Part shown: positions 5,275 to 36,542 of the stretch, piece by piece
Layout of the letters: each line of letters begins with the position of its first letter
How positions within the stretch are numbered: the first letter of the stretch is position 1
DNA from: Acidobacteriota bacterium
Lineage (GTDB): Bacteria > Acidobacteriota > Terriglobia > Bryobacterales > Bryobacteraceae
Assembly: GCA_016178945.1 (NCBI GenBank)
Contig: JACOSH010000537.1
Coordinates: forward strand, 1 to 40,542
Direction: 5' to 3'
DNA: 40,542 nt
The notes under the pieces: generated by a model
The model's input: the letters and a program-made list of their open reading frames with translations, nothing else
Database searches by the model: none
Told to the model about the DNA's origin: nothing
Position numbers and translations under genes: made by a program

Positions 5275-5370
5275 CGCAGTCACGGCAACCCGCCCGGCGA
5301 GGTCCAGCCGTCGTGTCTGGCCCCTCCGGGAGGATTGCGCCGCCGGGCCGCTTCTGGTAGATTGCGAACC

Positions 5371-8300
5371 ATGAGGACTCACAGTCTCTGCGTCACGGCC
5401 TGGATCGCGCTCGCGGTCGGGGCTTCCCTTTCGGCTCAGGTCACCACGGGAACCATTCTGGGATCCGCTCGCGACAACTCCGGCGCGGTGGTGGCCGGCG
5501 CCCGAATCACCATTACCGAAACCAGCAAAGGCACCGTCCAGCAGTACTCGACCGACGACACCGGCGCCTACAGCGCGCCCTTTCTGATCCCGGGCGTCTA
5601 CTCGGTGTCCGCCGAGAAGGAGGCGTTCAAGAAGCAGGTGCGCGAGGGCGTGATCCTGCAGGTCGATCAAAAAGCGCGCATCGATTTCACGCTGGAAGTC
5701 GGGGCGGTCACCGAAACCGTGAGCGTGACGGCCGCCGCGCCATTAGTGCGCTCGGACAGCTCCGAGCTGGGCGAGGTGATCGAAGAGCGCGCCGTCCGCG
5801 AGCTGCCGCTGAATGGACGGAACTTCGCGCAGCTTGTCTACCTGACGCCGGGCGTGACCGCCGGACAAATTGGCGAGAATCTTTCCGGCGCCAGCACCTT
5901 CAACCCGCGCGCAGGGTCCAACTTCAACGCGCTGGGCCATCACGGCAACTCCAACGGCTGGCTGGTCGACGGCATCGACAACAACGAGTACACCTTCAAC
6001 ACGGTGATCGTGCAGCCCTCCATCGAGTCGGTGCGCGAGTTCAAGGTCCTGACGGGAGTCTACTCGGCCGAGTTCGGACGCGGCGCGGGCGTGGTCTCGG
6101 TCTCCACCAAGTCCGGCAGCAACGAGCTCCACGGCAACGCCTTCAATTTTCTGCGCAACGACAAGCTGGACGCGAAGAACTATTTCGCGGCGCCCAATGT
6201 GCCCAAAGCGCCGTTGCGGCGCAACCAGTACGGCGCGGCGGTCGGCGGTCCGGTGCGCATCCCCAAGGTCTACGACGGCAAGAATCGCACCTTCTTCTTC
6301 GGCGACTACTTCGGCCTGCGCGAGATCCGCGGCCTGACCTTCGTCAACTCCGTGCCGACCGCGCGGGTAAGAGTGGGCGATTTCAGCCAGTACGAGCGCA
6401 CGCCGGGCAGCCTGATCCGGGTGTATGATCCGCTGACCACGCGGCTCAATCCGAACTTCAACCCCGCGCAGCCGGTCAGCGCCGCCAATCCGCAGTTCCT
6501 GCGCGATCCGTTCACGGGCAACATCATCCCGGCCAACCGCATCAATCCGGTGGGACGGAATGTCGCCAGCGTGTATCCGCAGCCCAACCAGGCGGGCAAC
6601 TTCAACAACTTCACCATCAACGCCAACCGCGTGGTGGAAGACAACGGCTTTACCACGCGTCTGGATCACCGCGTGAGCGAGAAAGATTCGCTGTTCTTCC
6701 GCTATAGCTGGGAGCTGTATAAGCTGGACGCGCCCCAGGGCCAGGCCAACTGTTGTTTGCCCACCCCGCCGGAGGCGGCGGCGAAATTCGAGCTGGGCCC
6801 GTTCGTGGCCGGCATCCAGAACACCCGCCTGACCACGCAGGGGGCCGCGCTGAACAACACCTACGTCTTCAAGCCGAACCTGCTGTACGAGGTGCGCGTG
6901 GGTTTCGCCCGCACCAATCCCTTCACCACCGCCTCCGATTACGGCCGCAACGCCGCCACCTCGCTCGGTATTCAGGGGGTCAACGTCAACCTGCTGACCT
7001 CAGGCATCCCCAACGTCGGGGTACAGGATTTCACGGGCTTGAGCGGCGGCCCGGCCTTTCTGCCGGTGAATCCGAAGCAGACGCACTACCAGATCGACAA
7101 CCAGCTCTTCTGGACCGTCAGCCGGCATTCGCTGAAATTCGGGCAGCACTACATCCGCCGGGACACGTCGCCGTACACGAACATCTCGCCCCGCGGCACG
7201 CTCAACTTCAACAACAATTTCACCAACGACCCGGCCACCAACGCCGGCGGCAGCGGCATGGCGACCCTGCTCACCGGCTACGTCAACAGCGCCAGCCGCG
7301 GCGCCCTGCTGGAGCCGTACTACCAGAGCAACAACGAGATCGCCTTCTTCTTTCAGGACGATTTCAAGGTCTCCCGGCGCCTGACGCTCAACCTGGGAGT
7401 CCGCTACGAGATATACACGCCGGACGTGGAGATCCGAGACCGGCTGGTCAACGTGGATCGGGTGGGCCTGCGGCTCATCTACGCCAACGAGGACGGCGCC
7501 AGCCGCACGGCCAACAAATCCACTCAGCACGGCAATTTCGCTCCGCGCATCGGGTTCGCCTACGATCTTCAGGGCAACGGAAAGACGGTGATCCGCGGCG
7601 GATTCGGCATCAGCTACTTCCCCGAGCCGGTGACGGCCAACGGCCAGCTCGGCATTCAGGTGCCCTACATCTTCTCGCAGAACCTGACCACCGAAACCAA
7701 CCCCACCGATTTCACGCGCGTGCCTCAGGTGCAGAATCCGTTCCCGCCGATTCAGGTGGTCAAGCCCAAGACCACGGCCGAGTACAACGCCCTCAATCCG
7801 TCGGCGCAGGGGCACGATTACAACAATCTCACCGGCTATGCCGAGCACTGGAGCCTGAACGTCGAGCGGCAGCTCCACTCGTCGCTGCTTTGGGAAGGAG
7901 CCTACGCCGGCAGCCGCGGCATTCACGTGATGATCAACCTGCCGCTCAACGAGGTGCAGCCGGGCCTGGGTTCCCAGCCCTCCCGGCGGCTGATCCAGCC
8001 GTTGAACAACATCACCGCGACCAGTATCTTCGCGCCGCGCAATATGAGCAGCTACCACAGCTTGCAGAACAAGGTGGTCAAGCGCTTCTCCCACGGCCTG
8101 CAAGCCCTGTTCAGCTACACCTATGGGAAGGCCGTGGACTTCGGCGGCTCGGCCGGCTCCGGCGGCGGCTCGACCGGCGGGCCGCAGACCATCACCTGTA
8201 TCCGCTGCGGGCGCGGCGCCTCCGGTTACGACATCAAGCACCGCGCGGTGGCCAGCTACGTCTACGACCTGCCTTTCGGTGCGGGCCGCAAGTTCCTCAA

Positions 8301-8760
8301 CCACAAAGGCGTCGTTGACTACGTCTTGGGCGGCTGGCGCCTGACCGGCATCACCACCCTGTCCACGGGCCGGCCCTACAACGTGGGCTTGAACACGGGC
8401 GTCAACAACGGCGCTCCAAGCTGGCCGAATCGCATCGGTCGCGGCACGCTCTCCAACGCGGACCCTTACAAGTGGTTTGACGACAGCGCGTTTGTGGCGC
8501 CTCCGGCCAACACCTACGGCAACGTCGCCCGCGGCGTTCTCTATGCGCCGGGACAAGTCAACTTCGATACGTCCTTCGTGAAGAACTTCAAGGTCACCGA
8601 GCGGGTCAACCTGCAATTCCGGCTGGATGCCTTCAACTTGTTCAACACGCCGGCCTTTGGCTTCCCGAACGCCAACATCGGCTCGCCCACCGTGGGCCGC
8701 ATCACCAGCACCATCGCCGATAATCGCGATCTGCAGTTTGCGCTGAAGGTCGAGTTCTAA
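5371..8760 (+). CDS. TonB-dependent receptor, Oar-like, N-terminal carboxypeptidase-regulatory-like domain
   Basis: MRTHSLCVTAWIALAVGASLSAQVTTGTILGSARDNSGAVVAGARITITE...; plug-like 'GNSNGWLVDGIDNNEYTFNTVIVQPSIESVREFKVLTGVYSAEFGRGAGVVSVSTKSGSNELHG'; C-terminal beta-barrel ending in LQFALKVEF. Confidence 0.93.
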   Translation: MRTHSLCVTAWIALAVGASLSAQVTTGTILGSARDNSGAVVAGARITITETSKGTVQQYSTDDTGAYSAPFLIPGVYSVSAEKEAFKKQVREGVILQVDQKARIDFTLEVGAVTETVSVTAAAPLVRSDSSELGEVIEERAVRELPLNGRNFAQLVYLTPGVTAGQIGENLSGASTFNPRAGSNFNALGHHGNSNGWLVDGIDNNEYTFNTVIVQPSIESVREFKVLTGVYSAEFGRGAGVVSVSTKSGSNELHGNAFNFLRNDKLDAKNYFAAPNVPKAPLRRNQYGAAVGGPVRIPKVYDGKNRTFFFGDYFGLREIRGLTFVNSVPTARVRVGDFSQYERTPGSLIRVYDPLTTRLNPNFNPAQPVSAANPQFLRDPFTGNIIPANRINPVGRNVASVYPQPNQAGNFNNFTINANRVVEDNGFTTRLDHRVSEKDSLFFRYSWELYKLDAPQGQANCCLPTPPEAAAKFELGPFVAGIQNTRLTTQGAALNNTYVFKPNLLYEVRVGFARTNPFTTASDYGRNAATSLGIQGVNVNLLTSGIPNVGVQDFTGLSGGPAFLPVNPKQTHYQIDNQLFWTVSRHSLKFGQHYIRRDTSPYTNISPRGTLNFNNNFTNDPATNAGGSGMATLLTGYVNSASRGALLEPYYQSNNEIAFFFQDDFKVSRRLTLNLGVRYEIYTPDVEIRDRLVNVDRVGLRLIYANEDGASRTANKSTQHGNFAPRIGFAYDLQGNGKTVIRGGFGISYFPEPVTANGQLGIQVPYIFSQNLTTETNPTDFTRVPQVQNPFPPIQVVKPKTTAEYNALNPSAQGHDYNNLTGYAEHWSLNVERQLHSSLLWEGAYAGSRGIHVMINLPLNEVQPGLGSQPSRRLIQPLNNITATSIFAPRNMSSYHSLQNKVVKRFSHGLQALFSYTYGKAVDFGGSAGSGGGSTGGPQTITCIRCGRGASGYDIKHRAVASYVYDLPFGAGRKFLNHKGVVDYVLGGWRLTGITTLSTGRPYNVGLNTGVNNGAPSWPNRIGRGTLSNADPYKWFDDSAFVAPPANTYGNVARGVLYAPGQVNFDTSFVKNFKVTERVNLQFRLDAFNLFNTPAFGFPNANIGSPTVGRITSTIADNRDLQFALKVEF

Positions 8761-8893
8761 CGGTAGAAGGCGAGTAAGTCAGGAGCCGGAAGTCTGAATG
8801 GCGCGGCCCAGCAGCTTGACAACCACCAGCCTTCATCCCTACAGTAAGCGTTATACATCGCCGGGGCGCCGATTGGCATGTGAGGGGGTTAGT

Positions 8894-11800
8894 ATGCTTC
8901 GAAAGATTTCTCGTGCGCTGGTATTGATGGGCCTGTTTGGTCTCCATGGATTTGGACAGCAGACCGGTCAAATGGTTGGGTCGGTCACCGACAGCAGCGG
9001 CGCGGTTGTGCCGGGCGCCACGATCAAGGCTACCGAAGTCGGCACCGGATTCGTCCGCACCACGATCGCGGGCAGCGACGGCGAGTACGTCTTGACGGCG
9101 CTGCGTCCGGCGCACTATGAGGTGACCGTCGAACATGCCGGTTTCCGGACATTCCGCCGTACCGGTATCGAGTTACTGGATAACCAGAGCCTGACGATCC
9201 ATGTCGCGCTGGATGTCGGCGCGGTGACCGAGACCGTCAACGTGGCGGCGGCGGCGGTGCAGGTGAATACGAGCACATCCGCGCTGAGCGAGGTCGTGGA
9301 TAACGCGCGCATCCTGGACCTGGTGCTGAACGGTCGCGACGTCGCCAAGTTGGCGGCCGTGATACCCGGCGTGGCCGTAATCTCGGTGAGCACGGAGACC
9401 GGTAAATCGATTCCGGGCGGGTTGCAGCTCTCGTCCAACGGCACGCGAAACGGCCAAGTCGCTTATAAGCTCGACGGGACCACCAATACCGATCCGTATT
9501 TCCAGGAGAACCAGACCTTCCCGTTCCCCGACGCCGTGCAGGAGTTCTCGATCACCACCAGCAACTATTCGGCGGCCCAGGGAAACAACTCGGGAGCGAT
9601 TGTGAACGTGGTCACCCGCTCGGGGAACAACAGCCTGCACGGCGGCGCATTTGAGTTCGTGCGCAACCGCGTGTTCAACGCGCGGCCTTACTTCTCGCCG
9701 GCCAAGGACTTTCTGAAACGCAACCAGTTCGGAGCCTACGGCGGCGGGCCGGTGCGCCTGCCCGGGTACGACGGGCGGAACAAGACGTTCTTCTTCATGG
9801 GCTGGCAACGAACAGAGATCCGCAACATTGGGAACCCGCTGTCGACGTTTGCCCCGACCAACGACGAGCGGAACGGCAACTTCAGCACCTGCGGGGCGCC
9901 TTGCAACCGCGTGCTTCGGGATCCGCTCGGCGGCAACTTCCCGAACAATCAGATTCCGGTGAGCCGGTTCGACCCGGCCGCCGTGAAGGTGAACTCGTAT
10001 ATCCCGGCCGTGGGAGGCGACGGCTTCATGGTGGTTCAGCGGCCCATCAACTGGCAGCAGGACCAGGGAGTGGCCAAAGTCGACCACCAGGTGACCCTCA
10101 AGGACCGGCTCAGCGCGCGGTACTTCATCGACCACTTTGTGAACGCCGGGAGTTTTGATCCGAAGAACCTGCTCTCGTACCGAAACCCGGTTCTGGCCTC
10201 GCGGGTGCGCAGCCAGAGCGCGGTCCTGACCTACACGCGTACGATGAGCGCGACGCTGCTCAACGACTTCCACCTCGGGTTTAACCGCATTCACGCCGCG
10301 CGAGGTCCCTTCTTCTCCGGCGTGCCGAGCATGCAGGACCTGGGCGTGCGGCTCCCCGTTTATCCGAGCCTGCCGTCGATTTCCCAGATCGAGCCGTCCG
10401 GGTTCTTCAGCATCGGCGACAACCTGGAAGCGAAGTTTCCGCGGACCGGGTTCGAGTGGGCCAACCGGACAAGCTGGGTGCGCGGGCGTCACAGCCTGCA
10501 ATTCGGCGGAGAGGTCAACTTTCAACGGGCGGACATCGCCAATCAGTTCCGCCGCGCCGGACACTTTGTGTTCAGCGGCGATGTCACCGGCCTGTCGATG
10601 GCGGACTACTTCCTGGGCTCCATCCGCACGTTCGACCAGGGGACCGGCGAGTACAAGGCCAACCGGAATGCCTACCCCGCCCTCTATTTCCAGGATGACT
10701 GGAAGGTGCGCCCGCGCCTGACTCTGAACCTCGGGATCCGGTACGAGCCGACCCCGCCGTGGCGCGAGGAGCGGGGCCGCATCCAGATCTTCCGGATTGA
10801 GGACTTCGCCGCCAAGGTGAAATCGTCGAAGTTCGCAAACGCCCCGTTCGGAGAGACGTTCCGCGGGGACCCGGGCGCGCCGCCGGATGGGACGCTGGGG
10901 GATTACAACAACTTCGGAGGCCGCGCCGGCTTCGCCTGGGACGTGTTCGGCGACGGCAAGACCAGCCTGCGCGGCGGCGCCGGAATGTTCTACGACCAGC
11001 ACCTGCAAGGGGACTTCAACAACAACGCGGTCAACGCTCCGCCGTGGAGCATCCGGCTGAGCGTAACCCAGCCGCAGGGGCCCTTCTCCGACCCCTACCG
11101 GGGGCGAACGGATTTCAGCTTGGTCCGAGTTGAGTCCATAGGGGACCCGAACGCGCCGTTCCCGCAGCCGGTTCTGATCTCGACCTATGATCCTCGCCAG
11201 GAAACACCGCTCACGTACAACTGGAATCTGACGCTGGAGCGGGAGGTCCGGCCCGAGTGGCTGGCGCGGGCGGCTTACGTGGGATCTTCGTCCTTGTACA
11301 ACCGGACCACCAAGCAGCTCAACCCGGCACAATACATCCCGGGATCCCCGCTAGGCACCGACGCCCGGCGGCTGTTCGCACCGGTGATCGGCAACGTCGA
11401 TTACTACACGCAAGACCGGCGGGCGCATTACCACTCTCTCCAGCTCTCGCTGACCAAGCGATTCTCGCACGGCTTTACCGTGCTGGCCGGCCACACCTAT
11501 TCCAAGAGCATGGATACGTTCGGTGACTTTGTGAAGCCGTGGTACTTCCCCAACGGCGACGCGATGCAGCAGGGTCCCTCCGATTTCGACCACAAGCAGC
11601 GCTTCGTCCTTTCGTGGGTTTGGGATGCGCCGAAAGCGCGGACCGGCAACGGATTCCTCAAGCACGTGTTGAACGGCTGGCAGTGGTCGGGCAACGGTCA
11701 ATACCAGACCGGCGCGCCGTTTAATATCAAGAGCGGTCGAGACAACTCGCTCACGGGCCTCGGCAACGACCGGCCGAAGCTGACCGGGGTGAGCACGGAT

Positions 11801-12124
11801 CCGGTCGCGGGGGCGGACAAGCGAGTCTGGTTCAACCCGGCGGCATTCGCCATCAACGACGCCGGCACTTTCGGGACTCTGGGGAGAAACGCGTTGTACG
11901 GTCCACGCCTCCACGGGTGGGACCTCGGCTTCTTCAAGAACAATCAGTTCGGCGAGCGAGTGAGGACGCAGTTCCGGGCAGAGATGTTTAACATCTTCAA
12001 CCAGGTGAACTTCAACAACCCCAACACCACGGTGACCGGCGGCGGATTCGGCACCATCACCAGCAGCAACCCCGCCGGGGGCGATTCGCGCATCATCCAG
12101 TTTGGCTTGAAAGTGACATTCTGA
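8894..12124 (+). CDS. TonB-dependent receptor, Oar-like, paralogous to the preceding gene
   Basis: MLRKISRALVLMGLFGLHGFGQQTGQMVGSVTDSSGAVVPGATIKATE...; 'VQEFSITTSNYSAAQGNNSGAIVNVVTRSGNNSLHGGAFEF'; ends IIQFGLKVTF. Confidence 0.93.
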   Translation: MLRKISRALVLMGLFGLHGFGQQTGQMVGSVTDSSGAVVPGATIKATEVGTGFVRTTIAGSDGEYVLTALRPAHYEVTVEHAGFRTFRRTGIELLDNQSLTIHVALDVGAVTETVNVAAAAVQVNTSTSALSEVVDNARILDLVLNGRDVAKLAAVIPGVAVISVSTETGKSIPGGLQLSSNGTRNGQVAYKLDGTTNTDPYFQENQTFPFPDAVQEFSITTSNYSAAQGNNSGAIVNVVTRSGNNSLHGGAFEFVRNRVFNARPYFSPAKDFLKRNQFGAYGGGPVRLPGYDGRNKTFFFMGWQRTEIRNIGNPLSTFAPTNDERNGNFSTCGAPCNRVLRDPLGGNFPNNQIPVSRFDPAAVKVNSYIPAVGGDGFMVVQRPINWQQDQGVAKVDHQVTLKDRLSARYFIDHFVNAGSFDPKNLLSYRNPVLASRVRSQSAVLTYTRTMSATLLNDFHLGFNRIHAARGPFFSGVPSMQDLGVRLPVYPSLPSISQIEPSGFFSIGDNLEAKFPRTGFEWANRTSWVRGRHSLQFGGEVNFQRADIANQFRRAGHFVFSGDVTGLSMADYFLGSIRTFDQGTGEYKANRNAYPALYFQDDWKVRPRLTLNLGIRYEPTPPWREERGRIQIFRIEDFAAKVKSSKFANAPFGETFRGDPGAPPDGTLGDYNNFGGRAGFAWDVFGDGKTSLRGGAGMFYDQHLQGDFNNNAVNAPPWSIRLSVTQPQGPFSDPYRGRTDFSLVRVESIGDPNAPFPQPVLISTYDPRQETPLTYNWNLTLEREVRPEWLARAAYVGSSSLYNRTTKQLNPAQYIPGSPLGTDARRLFAPVIGNVDYYTQDRRAHYHSLQLSLTKRFSHGFTVLAGHTYSKSMDTFGDFVKPWYFPNGDAMQQGPSDFDHKQRFVLSWVWDAPKARTGNGFLKHVLNGWQWSGNGQYQTGAPFNIKSGRDNSLTGLGNDRPKLTGVSTDPVAGADKRVWFNPAAFAINDAGTFGTLGRNALYGPRLHGWDLGFFKNNQFGERVRTQFRAEMFNIFNQVNFNNPNTTVTGGGFGTITSSNPAGGDSRIIQFGLKVTF

Positions 12125-24783: not shown

Positions 24784-27428
<2,645 letters not shown>

Positions 27429-27432
<4 letters not shown>

Positions 27433-33908: not shown

Positions 33909-36542
33909 ATGAAACCTAGAGTTCTGGCCCTCGCGCTACTTTCAGCGTCGCTCCCGGCGGTGTTCGCTCAGAGCACTACCATCCGCGTCGCCATCATCCC
34001 CGACAGCCAGAGTCTGACCGTCACGCCTCAGACCGAGACCGTGCTGCGCGTCACCGTCTTCGGGTCCGACGGCAAAGTCGCGCCGGACCTCGGGGTGGTG
34101 TTTGTGGCGCCCGAATCCGGCGCTACCGGCTCCTTTCCGGAGGCCCCTTCCGACGGAGCCACGCTCTACTGGACGAAGACCGACTCCGATGGCAGCGCGT
34201 CGGCGCGCTTCCTTCCCAACGGAACGGCGGGCATCTACCTGCTGGCCGCCGCAGTGGACGGCAGCGATGCCAGCGTAACCTTTGCGGTGACCAGCTCGGC
34301 CGATGCCCCCTCCAACACGCTCTCCGGCGACGAGGCGCGAGCCGCTCTGCGAGCGCAGCTCACCCTGAAAGCCTTTGACGATGAATCGCAGCGCCTCCAC
34401 GGCCCCGTGCTTCTGCCGGCCGGCTCCACCGTCAAGGCCGCCGGGCAGAGCAGCCGGCTCTTTCCCACCACGCCCGCGACCACGGAGAGATCCTCCTGGT
34501 TGTTCTGGATCGACGACAACCCTCTGGCCCGCTTCGAGCATCCCACGCGCTTCGTCATCCTCGACGCCGCCTCGGGCAGCTCCGATTTCAACGACTTCAC
34601 CCGTATCGCCACCCTCACGCGCCAGGGCTGGTGGCCCGAGGTTATACTGCCCGGCGCGGACACGCCGGTATCTCTGCTCTCTCCGCTGCGCACTAACAGC
34701 GGTCTCACCGTTTCACGCGCCGCCCGAGCCCGCCCCGCGGCCGTCGAGCTGGCGCGCGCCCCCTTCGCCAACGTCAGCCCCGACCAGACTTGCGCCATTG
34801 TGATTTATGGCCCCTCCGATACCGCCATGTCCATCGATGCCGACGACATGAGCAAATTCTTCCACGAGAAACTGCTCATCCCCGAGACCAACATTTTCCG
34901 GGGCACGAATCTGTTCGGATTCTCCCGCCCCACCAACGGCTCCATGCTGCAGGCTTTTGTCCGCGGCGCGGTGCGTCAGGGTTGCAAGAAAGTCTACCTG
35001 TACGTCTCGGCCCACGGTTCGCTTGGAGCCAACGGCAACTCTTGAACCGGCGATTCAGGGTCCTCGGTCGAGGACTGCCAAAGCGGTTACATCTGTTTGG
35101 ATAATGAGAACAACAACGATGGTTCCACGGAGTTCGACTATCTTTCTTATCAGGAGCTCGGCCAGTTCCTCCAGCCCCTGAAGGACCAGGCCGAGGTCTG
35201 CATCATCCTCGACGTCTGCTTTTCGGGCGGGGCCATCGCCCACATGCAGAATATCAACCTGACCGGCGCCATCGTCACCGGCGCCGATACGAGCGGCTAT
35301 ACAGTCGAGCTGAATCTGCCGCTCATCGGCGGCGGCTACTTCACCAGCGCTCTCATCAGTTGCTGGAAGGACCTCCTGGGCCAGCGTCCCGGCCAGCCGG
35401 CCGGTTTGGACGAGGTGACCCGCTGGGTCACCGCGAACGGGGGCGCGAGCGCCAATAACGGGCATCCTCAATTCGCAACCATCGATGCCAAGGGCGGCGT
35501 ATTTCCGCTGAATACCGCGATTATTGAAAAGGTCGACGACCCCAAGAGTAACCCGGTGACTGTGAGGATCGACCGGCCGGCCGGGGCCAACGGCGGGCTG
35601 GTCGTCAAGCTGACGATCTCCGATCCCACGGTGGCGAATTTCGGCGGGGAAACAACCGTTGTCAAGGCGCTCCCGGCCGGAGTGAATTCCACCACCATCC
35701 AGATCACCGGTCTGCGCGACGGCGTCACCACGTACACGGCTGAGACCCAGGACAGCAACAACAAGCCGTATAAGGGTCTGGGAACCGTGCGCGTGGGCGA
35801 CGGCTACTTCGTGCAGCCCAACCCGATCCGGATCAAGGCCGGCGACAAAGTTTCCGCGACCCTGTTCCGGATGTTCGGCGTCGCCAACGTGACCGGTCCG
35901 GTAAAGTGCACGTTCATTCCCAAGGACCCCACTCAGACCGGAATCGCCGGGGTTACACCCGATGTCACCTTCAACACCGGCGAAACCCAGAAGACTTTCA
36001 CAGTGGAGGGACTACGTCCCGGAACCGTGATCATCAAGGTGACCGACAACCTCGCGTTTCCGCTGGGCACCACGTTCCAGGTGATCGTGGAAGGAACTCC
36101 GCAGACCGGGTGCCTGTTCCAGGGCACGGCGGATTCCACCTTCGTGGTGAGCTTCGATCCGCCTCCGATGCATGATCCGTTCATCGGAATCCGCCGCGCG
36201 GTGCTCCAGTACAACTCTACCGCCCAGGGCGCGGTCACCATCTCCAGCGATCAGCCCCAGGTGGTGCGCGCCACCGGAACGCTGAACCAGACCACCTGCG
36301 TGTTCAATGCGTCGGGAACGGGAACCGTCGCGGGCTTCCAAAACGTCTCGTGCCAATACCGGAACGTCAAGGTGGATCGCGCCACCAACAGAATCCAAGG
36401 CGATTACGCGCTGGGCGTCAGTCGCGAGCTGCCCAGCGGCCACGAGATCGTCTACAGCTTTACGGGAACGTTCCGCGCCGGCACTACCGCCTCGGCGCCC
36501 GCACGGCCGCTTGCCGGACCAAGCCTGCCAGCGCCGCGATGA
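33909..36542 (+). pseudogene. Secreted caspase-like (clan CD) cysteine peptidase with Ig-like regions, one in-frame stop (TGA at 35043-35045)
   Basis: Signal peptide MKPRVLALALLSASLPAVFAQ; catalytic-His-like 'KKVYLYVSAHGSLGANGNS' before the stop; same frame after it TGDSGSSVEDCQSGYICLDNENNNDG...AEVCIILDVCFSGGAI with the catalytic-Cys-like motif; Ig-like C-terminus. Confidence 0.8.

What the first reader, a model, noticed from the sequence alone, without database searches (positions are those of the whole stretch)
35043..35045. Caspase-like secreted peptidase with an in-frame TGA between catalytic His and Cys motifs
33909-35045 and the sequence from 35046 to 36542 are in the same frame with no other stop: ...SAHGSLGANGNS-TGA-TGDSGSSVEDCQSGYICLDNENNNDG...IILDVCFSGG. 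The stop separates the His-Gly motif from the Cys motif, so neither half alone has the predicted dyad. A single TGG or CGA to TGA change would explain it. Secreted bacterial caspase-like proteins with Ig-like regions are little studied.
Basis: partly seen in the sequence, partly recalled or inferred. Interest (0 to 1): 0.66.

Follow-up and report, generated by a model that had tools for sequence, protein, structure and literature searches.

The report
Caspase-like peptidase gene with in-frame stop
A rare secreted caspase-like protease gene in an Acidobacteria draft genome is cut by one stray stop codon; a second gene nearby (ClpB) is cut in the same way, so this is most likely a sequencing or strain variant or a fresh mutation, although a selenocysteine reading cannot be fully excluded.

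Summary
In detail: 33909-36542 is one reading frame broken only by TGA at 35043-35045, between the clan CD His (codon 369) and Cys (codon 437). Every full-length homologue found reads through this place as a single ORF, and the read-through catalytic domain folds like metacaspase, legumain and caspase-9. So this is one gene with one stop, not two genes. The stop sits in a loop of about 20 residues unique to this protein, so homologues cannot say which residue belongs there.

I tested selenocysteine. The genome has SelA, tRNA-Sec and a TGA-containing formate dehydrogenase, and a hairpin fitting the bacterial SECIS model follows the TGA. But such a hairpin arises by chance in 1-3% of cases, does not resemble the lineage's own SECIS, no homologue has Cys or Sec there, and SelB was not found in this assembly. 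The genome's only canonical ClpB, 9 kb away on the same contig, is also cut by a lone stop: TAA, which cannot encode Sec, where all 12 relatives aligned have Glu. No such lesion was clear in about 300 kb sampled elsewhere. Best reading: an isolated nonsense in the assembled sequence (consensus or strain variant, or very recent mutation). Low interest, with a small selenoprotein outside chance.

The parts
33909..35042 (+). N-terminal part (378 aa): signal peptide, weak Big_1-like domain, conserved SWLFWIDD..HPTR region, first half of the caspase-like domain with catalytic His369 (35013-35015)
35043..35045 (+). in-frame TGA, codon 379, in a loop unique to this protein
35046..36542 (+). C-terminal part (498 aa + terminal TGA): catalytic Cys437 (35217-35219) and C-terminal beta-rich region
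35059..35076 (+). hairpin with GGUC loop 20 nt after the TGA; fits the bacterial SECIS model; arises by chance in 1-3% of comparable places
   Evidence: model from PMC13188914
24784..27432 (+). ClpB gene, also interrupted by one in-frame stop (TAA 26056-26058): the comparison case

Best explanation
33909-36542 is one gene for an exported protein: a signal peptide and beta-rich N-terminal part, then a clan CD (caspase/legumain-like) His-Cys cysteine-peptidase domain, then a beta-rich tail. As assembled it carries a single nonsense codon between His and Cys. Translation would end ten residues after the catalytic His, giving an exported fragment without the Cys strand, hence no peptidase. The nonsense is most likely a base in the draft assembly (consensus error or minority-strain variant); less likely it is a real, very recent mutation in the population. 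Shown: one gene, intact homologues, clan CD fold, a second unrelated nonsense on the same contig. Inferred: that the TGA is not recoded, and the split between artefact (about 0.5) and true recent mutation (about 0.3).
For: All full-length homologues found read through the place as a single ORF: L014/G068 1191 codons, L015 and L016 (Armatimonadota), L017-L019 and L067-L071 (Bryobacteraceae and other Acidobacteriota), L072/G248, L020. There is no second lesion in 877 codons and the coding signal is unbroken, so the lesion is very recent or not real. The only canonical ClpB of the genome, in the same window, has one TAA (26056) where all 12 relatives aligned have Glu, and no relative's ClpB listed has a stop; TAA cannot be Sec. 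A coding-potential screen of 342 kb of this assembly found clear isolated within-gene stops only in this 40-kb contig, apart from the formate dehydrogenase Sec codon. The window comes from a draft assembly of 606 contigs, 92% complete, 4% contamination; its tetranucleotide profile is typical of the other contigs.
Against: No reads can be seen, so neither an error nor a fixed mutation is shown directly. The stop is TGA, in a Sec-decoding lineage, followed at the right distance by a SECIS-like hairpin. The enrichment on this contig (2 in 40 kb, none clear in about 300 kb) rests on two events, on a screen in which real gene boundaries were set aside by eye, and was noticed after the fact.
Confidence: 0.8

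Rival explanations
1. The TGA encodes selenocysteine: the hairpin at 35059-35076 is a SECIS, SelB delivers Sec-tRNA, and the product is a full-length exported clan CD peptidase with Sec in a loop beside the catalytic His (a new selenoprotein family).
For: The genome has tRNA-Sec (77.7 bits against a cut-off of 47; ARAGORN agrees), SelA (truncated at a contig end) and an FdnG/FdoG formate dehydrogenase with in-frame TGA. SelB is over cut-off in 25 of 31 genomes searched. The hairpin meets the published model: 7-bp stem, loop GGUC, spacing 20 nt.
Against: As good a hairpin appears in 3.1% of synonymous reshufflings and after 1.1% of codons in window genes. Overall folding is unremarkable (z -1.26; 40% of TGAs fold as well). 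A covariance model of the lineage's own formate dehydrogenase SECIS does not match it (weak evidence, as that model carries much formate dehydrogenase sequence). No homologue has Cys or Sec here; the whole loop is absent from them. SelB is not found in this assembly. A TAA-broken ClpB on the same contig shows that non-Sec stops occur here.
Confidence: 0.08
2. General leaky read-through (near-cognate tRNA) of a fixed TGA makes some full-length protein, as proposed for many bacterial in-frame stops (PMC7918605, abstract only read).
For: The downstream part is undamaged.
Against: No conserved stop in any relative; nothing specific points to it; the ClpB TAA would need the same excuse.
Confidence: 0.08
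3. The gene is really split into two working proteins, the second starting downstream of the TGA.
For: The downstream ORF has an in-frame TTG at 35097.
Against: No evident ribosome site or signal peptide for the second half; each half lacks one member of the dyad; every full-length homologue is a single ORF.
Confidence: 0.04

Closest known systems
Clan CD cysteine peptidases: metacaspases/orthocaspases (C14) and legumains (C13)
   Same: His-Gly and Cys-x-[SA] motifs on successive strands; Foldseek top hits of the read-through model are metacaspase-9, legumain, caspase-9, MALT1 and GSU0716 with probability 1.00; weak profile hits to C13 and C14 among the members.
   Different: About 10-16% identity to solved members; no Pfam family over cut-off for the window protein; exported, with a conserved N-terminal SW..W.DD..HPTR region that matched no named family.
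Pseudo-orthocaspases (PMC6426788)
   Same: Relatives in Bryobacteraceae keep the fold but have lost both catalytic residues.
   Different: The substitutions here are Met/Ala for His and Asn for Cys, whereas the paper's common dyads are YS, YA, FS and YN; the window protein itself keeps His and Cys codons.
Bacterial selenoproteins with SECIS (formate dehydrogenase alpha, FdnG/FdoG)
   Same: In-frame TGA followed by a small hairpin with G and U in the loop; same genome.
   Different: Formate dehydrogenase has the TGA in all relatives that cover the site, at a conserved active-site position with a lineage-wide hairpin; the peptidase has none of these.

Membership tests
Clan CD (caspase-like) cysteine peptidase | His-Cys dyad in the order strand-His, helix, strand-Cys | tested here: met
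   H369 and C437 align with the HG and C motifs of active-type homologues, counting the frame read through
Clan CD (caspase-like) cysteine peptidase | caspase/legumain fold | tested here: met
   model confidence only moderate (mean pLDDT 61, core strands about 70-89)
Clan CD (caspase-like) cysteine peptidase | peptidase activity | not testable with these tools
   needs an assay on an intact homologue
Selenoprotein | organism has Sec machinery | tested here: inconclusive
   SelA, tRNA-Sec and a TGA-containing formate dehydrogenase present; SelB not found in this assembly; SelD not tested
Selenoprotein | SECIS directly after the TGA | tested here: inconclusive
   fits the published model but 1-3% chance rate; no match to lineage SECIS
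Selenoprotein | Sec/Cys homologues at the same position | tested here: not met
   position absent from all homologues found
Pseudogene / nonsense allele | homologues intact across the stop | tested here: met
Pseudogene / nonsense allele | stop present in the reads and fixed | not testable with these tools
   no reads available

The most novel reading that the evidence does not exclude
Codon 379 is selenocysteine, making this an exported caspase/legumain-like selenoprotein, a family not in the published lists, with Sec in a loop next to the catalytic His.
Probability: 0.07. Interest if true: 0.75.

Novelty: new member of a known kind. Interest (0 to 1): 0.2.

Why it matters
As it stands, mostly a lesson: a lone in-frame stop in a draft genome from metagenomes should be weighed against other lone stops on the same contig before recoding is invoked. 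The peptidase family itself (exported, rare, with a conserved unnamed N-terminal region and a branch that lost both catalytic residues) is little described. If the TGA were Sec, it would put selenium in a peptidase family; the 2026 prokaryotic selenoprotein review does not mention caspase, peptidase or protease.

Tried and rejected
Genetic-code change: rejected, since the gene's own terminal stop is TGA. Two separate genes: rejected by single-ORF homologues. SECIS as an Rfam family: no match. Lineage SECIS covariance model: finds the genome's formate dehydrogenase (56 bits) but not this site. SelB in the assembly: matches were EF-Tu, CysN and other GTPases, none over cut-off. Homologues on plasmids or viral contigs: none. 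First genome-contig scan with the short second half found nothing; the two-sequence profile found seven. Contig foreign to the assembly: composition typical. Other lesions or frameshifts in the window: none seen besides ClpB.

Full report
What is there. The frame 33909-36542 (+) holds 378 codons, TGA at 35043-35045, 498 codons and a terminal TGA. The start has a plausible ribosome site and a signal peptide. The stop lies ten codons after the conserved His (SAHG) and 58 before the conserved Cys (DVCFSGG). Coding signal runs through the stop in the same frame and no other frame competes. The window is contig C534 of a draft genome of 7.3 Mb in 606 contigs, 92% complete, 4% contamination, the only one held for its genus. 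A genome of its family (G807) is identical over 3.9 kb to a record labelled Bryobacter sp., so the window is from an acidobacterium of the Bryobacteraceae or close to it.

One gene, not two. Few genomes carry a homologue. A protein search found one in the same order (G068, 33% identity over the whole length, one ORF of 1191 codons). A two-sequence profile then found seven loci, in Acidobacteriota, Armatimonadota and a deltaproteobacterium, and a profile of the catalytic region found more in the same family, including G248. In every full-length one the region from the N-terminal part through the His and Cys motifs is a single uninterrupted ORF. The window is the only one with a stop. The stop sits in a loop of about 20 extra residues between the His motif and the next conserved strand (LSYQEL) that no homologue has, so the original residue cannot be read off.

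Fold. No Pfam family passes its cut-off for the window protein; some relatives match Peptidase_C13 or C14. AlphaFold2 on an 11-row alignment gave a moderate model (mean pLDDT 61, core strands about 70-89), and Foldseek placed it with metacaspase-9, legumain, caspase-9, MALT1 and the Geobacter protein GSU0716, probability 1.00. It is a clan CD cysteine peptidase by fold and dyad. Relatives in Bryobacteraceae keep the domain but have Met or Ala for His and Asn for Cys, so this family has an inactive branch, as known for orthocaspases (PMC6426788).

Selenocysteine tested. The lineage decodes UGA as Sec: SelA is over cut-off in 37 of 41 genomes including this one, SelB in 25 of 31 but not this one, tRNA-Sec is present here, and this genome's formate dehydrogenase alpha subunit has one in-frame TGA, as do its relatives. 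After the peptidase TGA there is a hairpin (GGUCCUC-GGUC-GAGGACU) whose loop starts 20 nt downstream, meeting the published bacterial SECIS model (PMC13188914). But the model is permissive: 44% of TGAs in the window meet the loosest form and 1.6% a strict one, 1.1% of in-frame codons in window genes are followed by as good a hairpin, and 3.1% of synonymous reshufflings make one, since the stem is written by common codons for SSVED. A covariance model of the lineage's formate dehydrogenase SECIS scores 56 bits on this genome's own copy and finds nothing at the peptidase TGA; that model carries much formate dehydrogenase sequence, so this is weak negative evidence. No homologue has Cys or Sec at the place.

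The comparison that tips the balance. Annotating the window showed that ClpB (24784-27432), the only canonical ClpB of this genome, is also cut by a lone in-frame stop, TAA at 26056-26058. All 12 relatives aligned have Glu there, two solved ClpBs have Glu or Lys, and none of the relatives' ClpBs listed contains a stop. TAA cannot be selenocysteine. A coding-potential screen of 342 kb of the assembly found clear isolated within-gene stops only in this contig, besides the formate dehydrogenase Sec codon; the other same-frame stops look like ordinary gene boundaries, mostly with a start within a few codons. Two lone stops 9 kb apart in otherwise pristine genes suggest a contig with base errors or mixed strains, or, less likely, two recent mutations.

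Verdict. The best explanation is an isolated nonsense in the assembled sequence, not recoding. I give this 0.8, selenocysteine 0.08, leaky read-through 0.08, and two separate genes 0.04. Whether the stop is in the living population cannot be told without reads.

Noticed in passing
window 24784-27432 (+), stop at 26056-26058: The genome's only canonical ClpB is interrupted by a lone in-frame TAA where all 12 relatives aligned have Glu.
   Followed up: yes
L017, L018, L019, L067-L071: Bryobacteraceae homologues of the peptidase keep the domain but have Met/Ala in place of His and Asn in place of Cys: a conserved pseudo-peptidase branch.
   Followed up: partly
G000:C437:5873-8854 (-), L086/L107: Formate dehydrogenase-N/O alpha subunit with an in-frame TGA and a lineage-conserved SECIS-like hairpin; almost certainly a selenoprotein.
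   Followed up: partly
G000 whole genome: SelA (truncated at contig end, C217) and tRNA-Sec (C450) present but no SelB found, although 25 of the 31 genomes searched have it; probably missing from the assembly.
   Followed up: partly
window 5335-12124 (+): Two adjacent genes for large outer-membrane beta-barrel proteins with a carboxypeptidase-regulatory-like N-terminal domain (PF25183 and PF13620).
   Followed up: no
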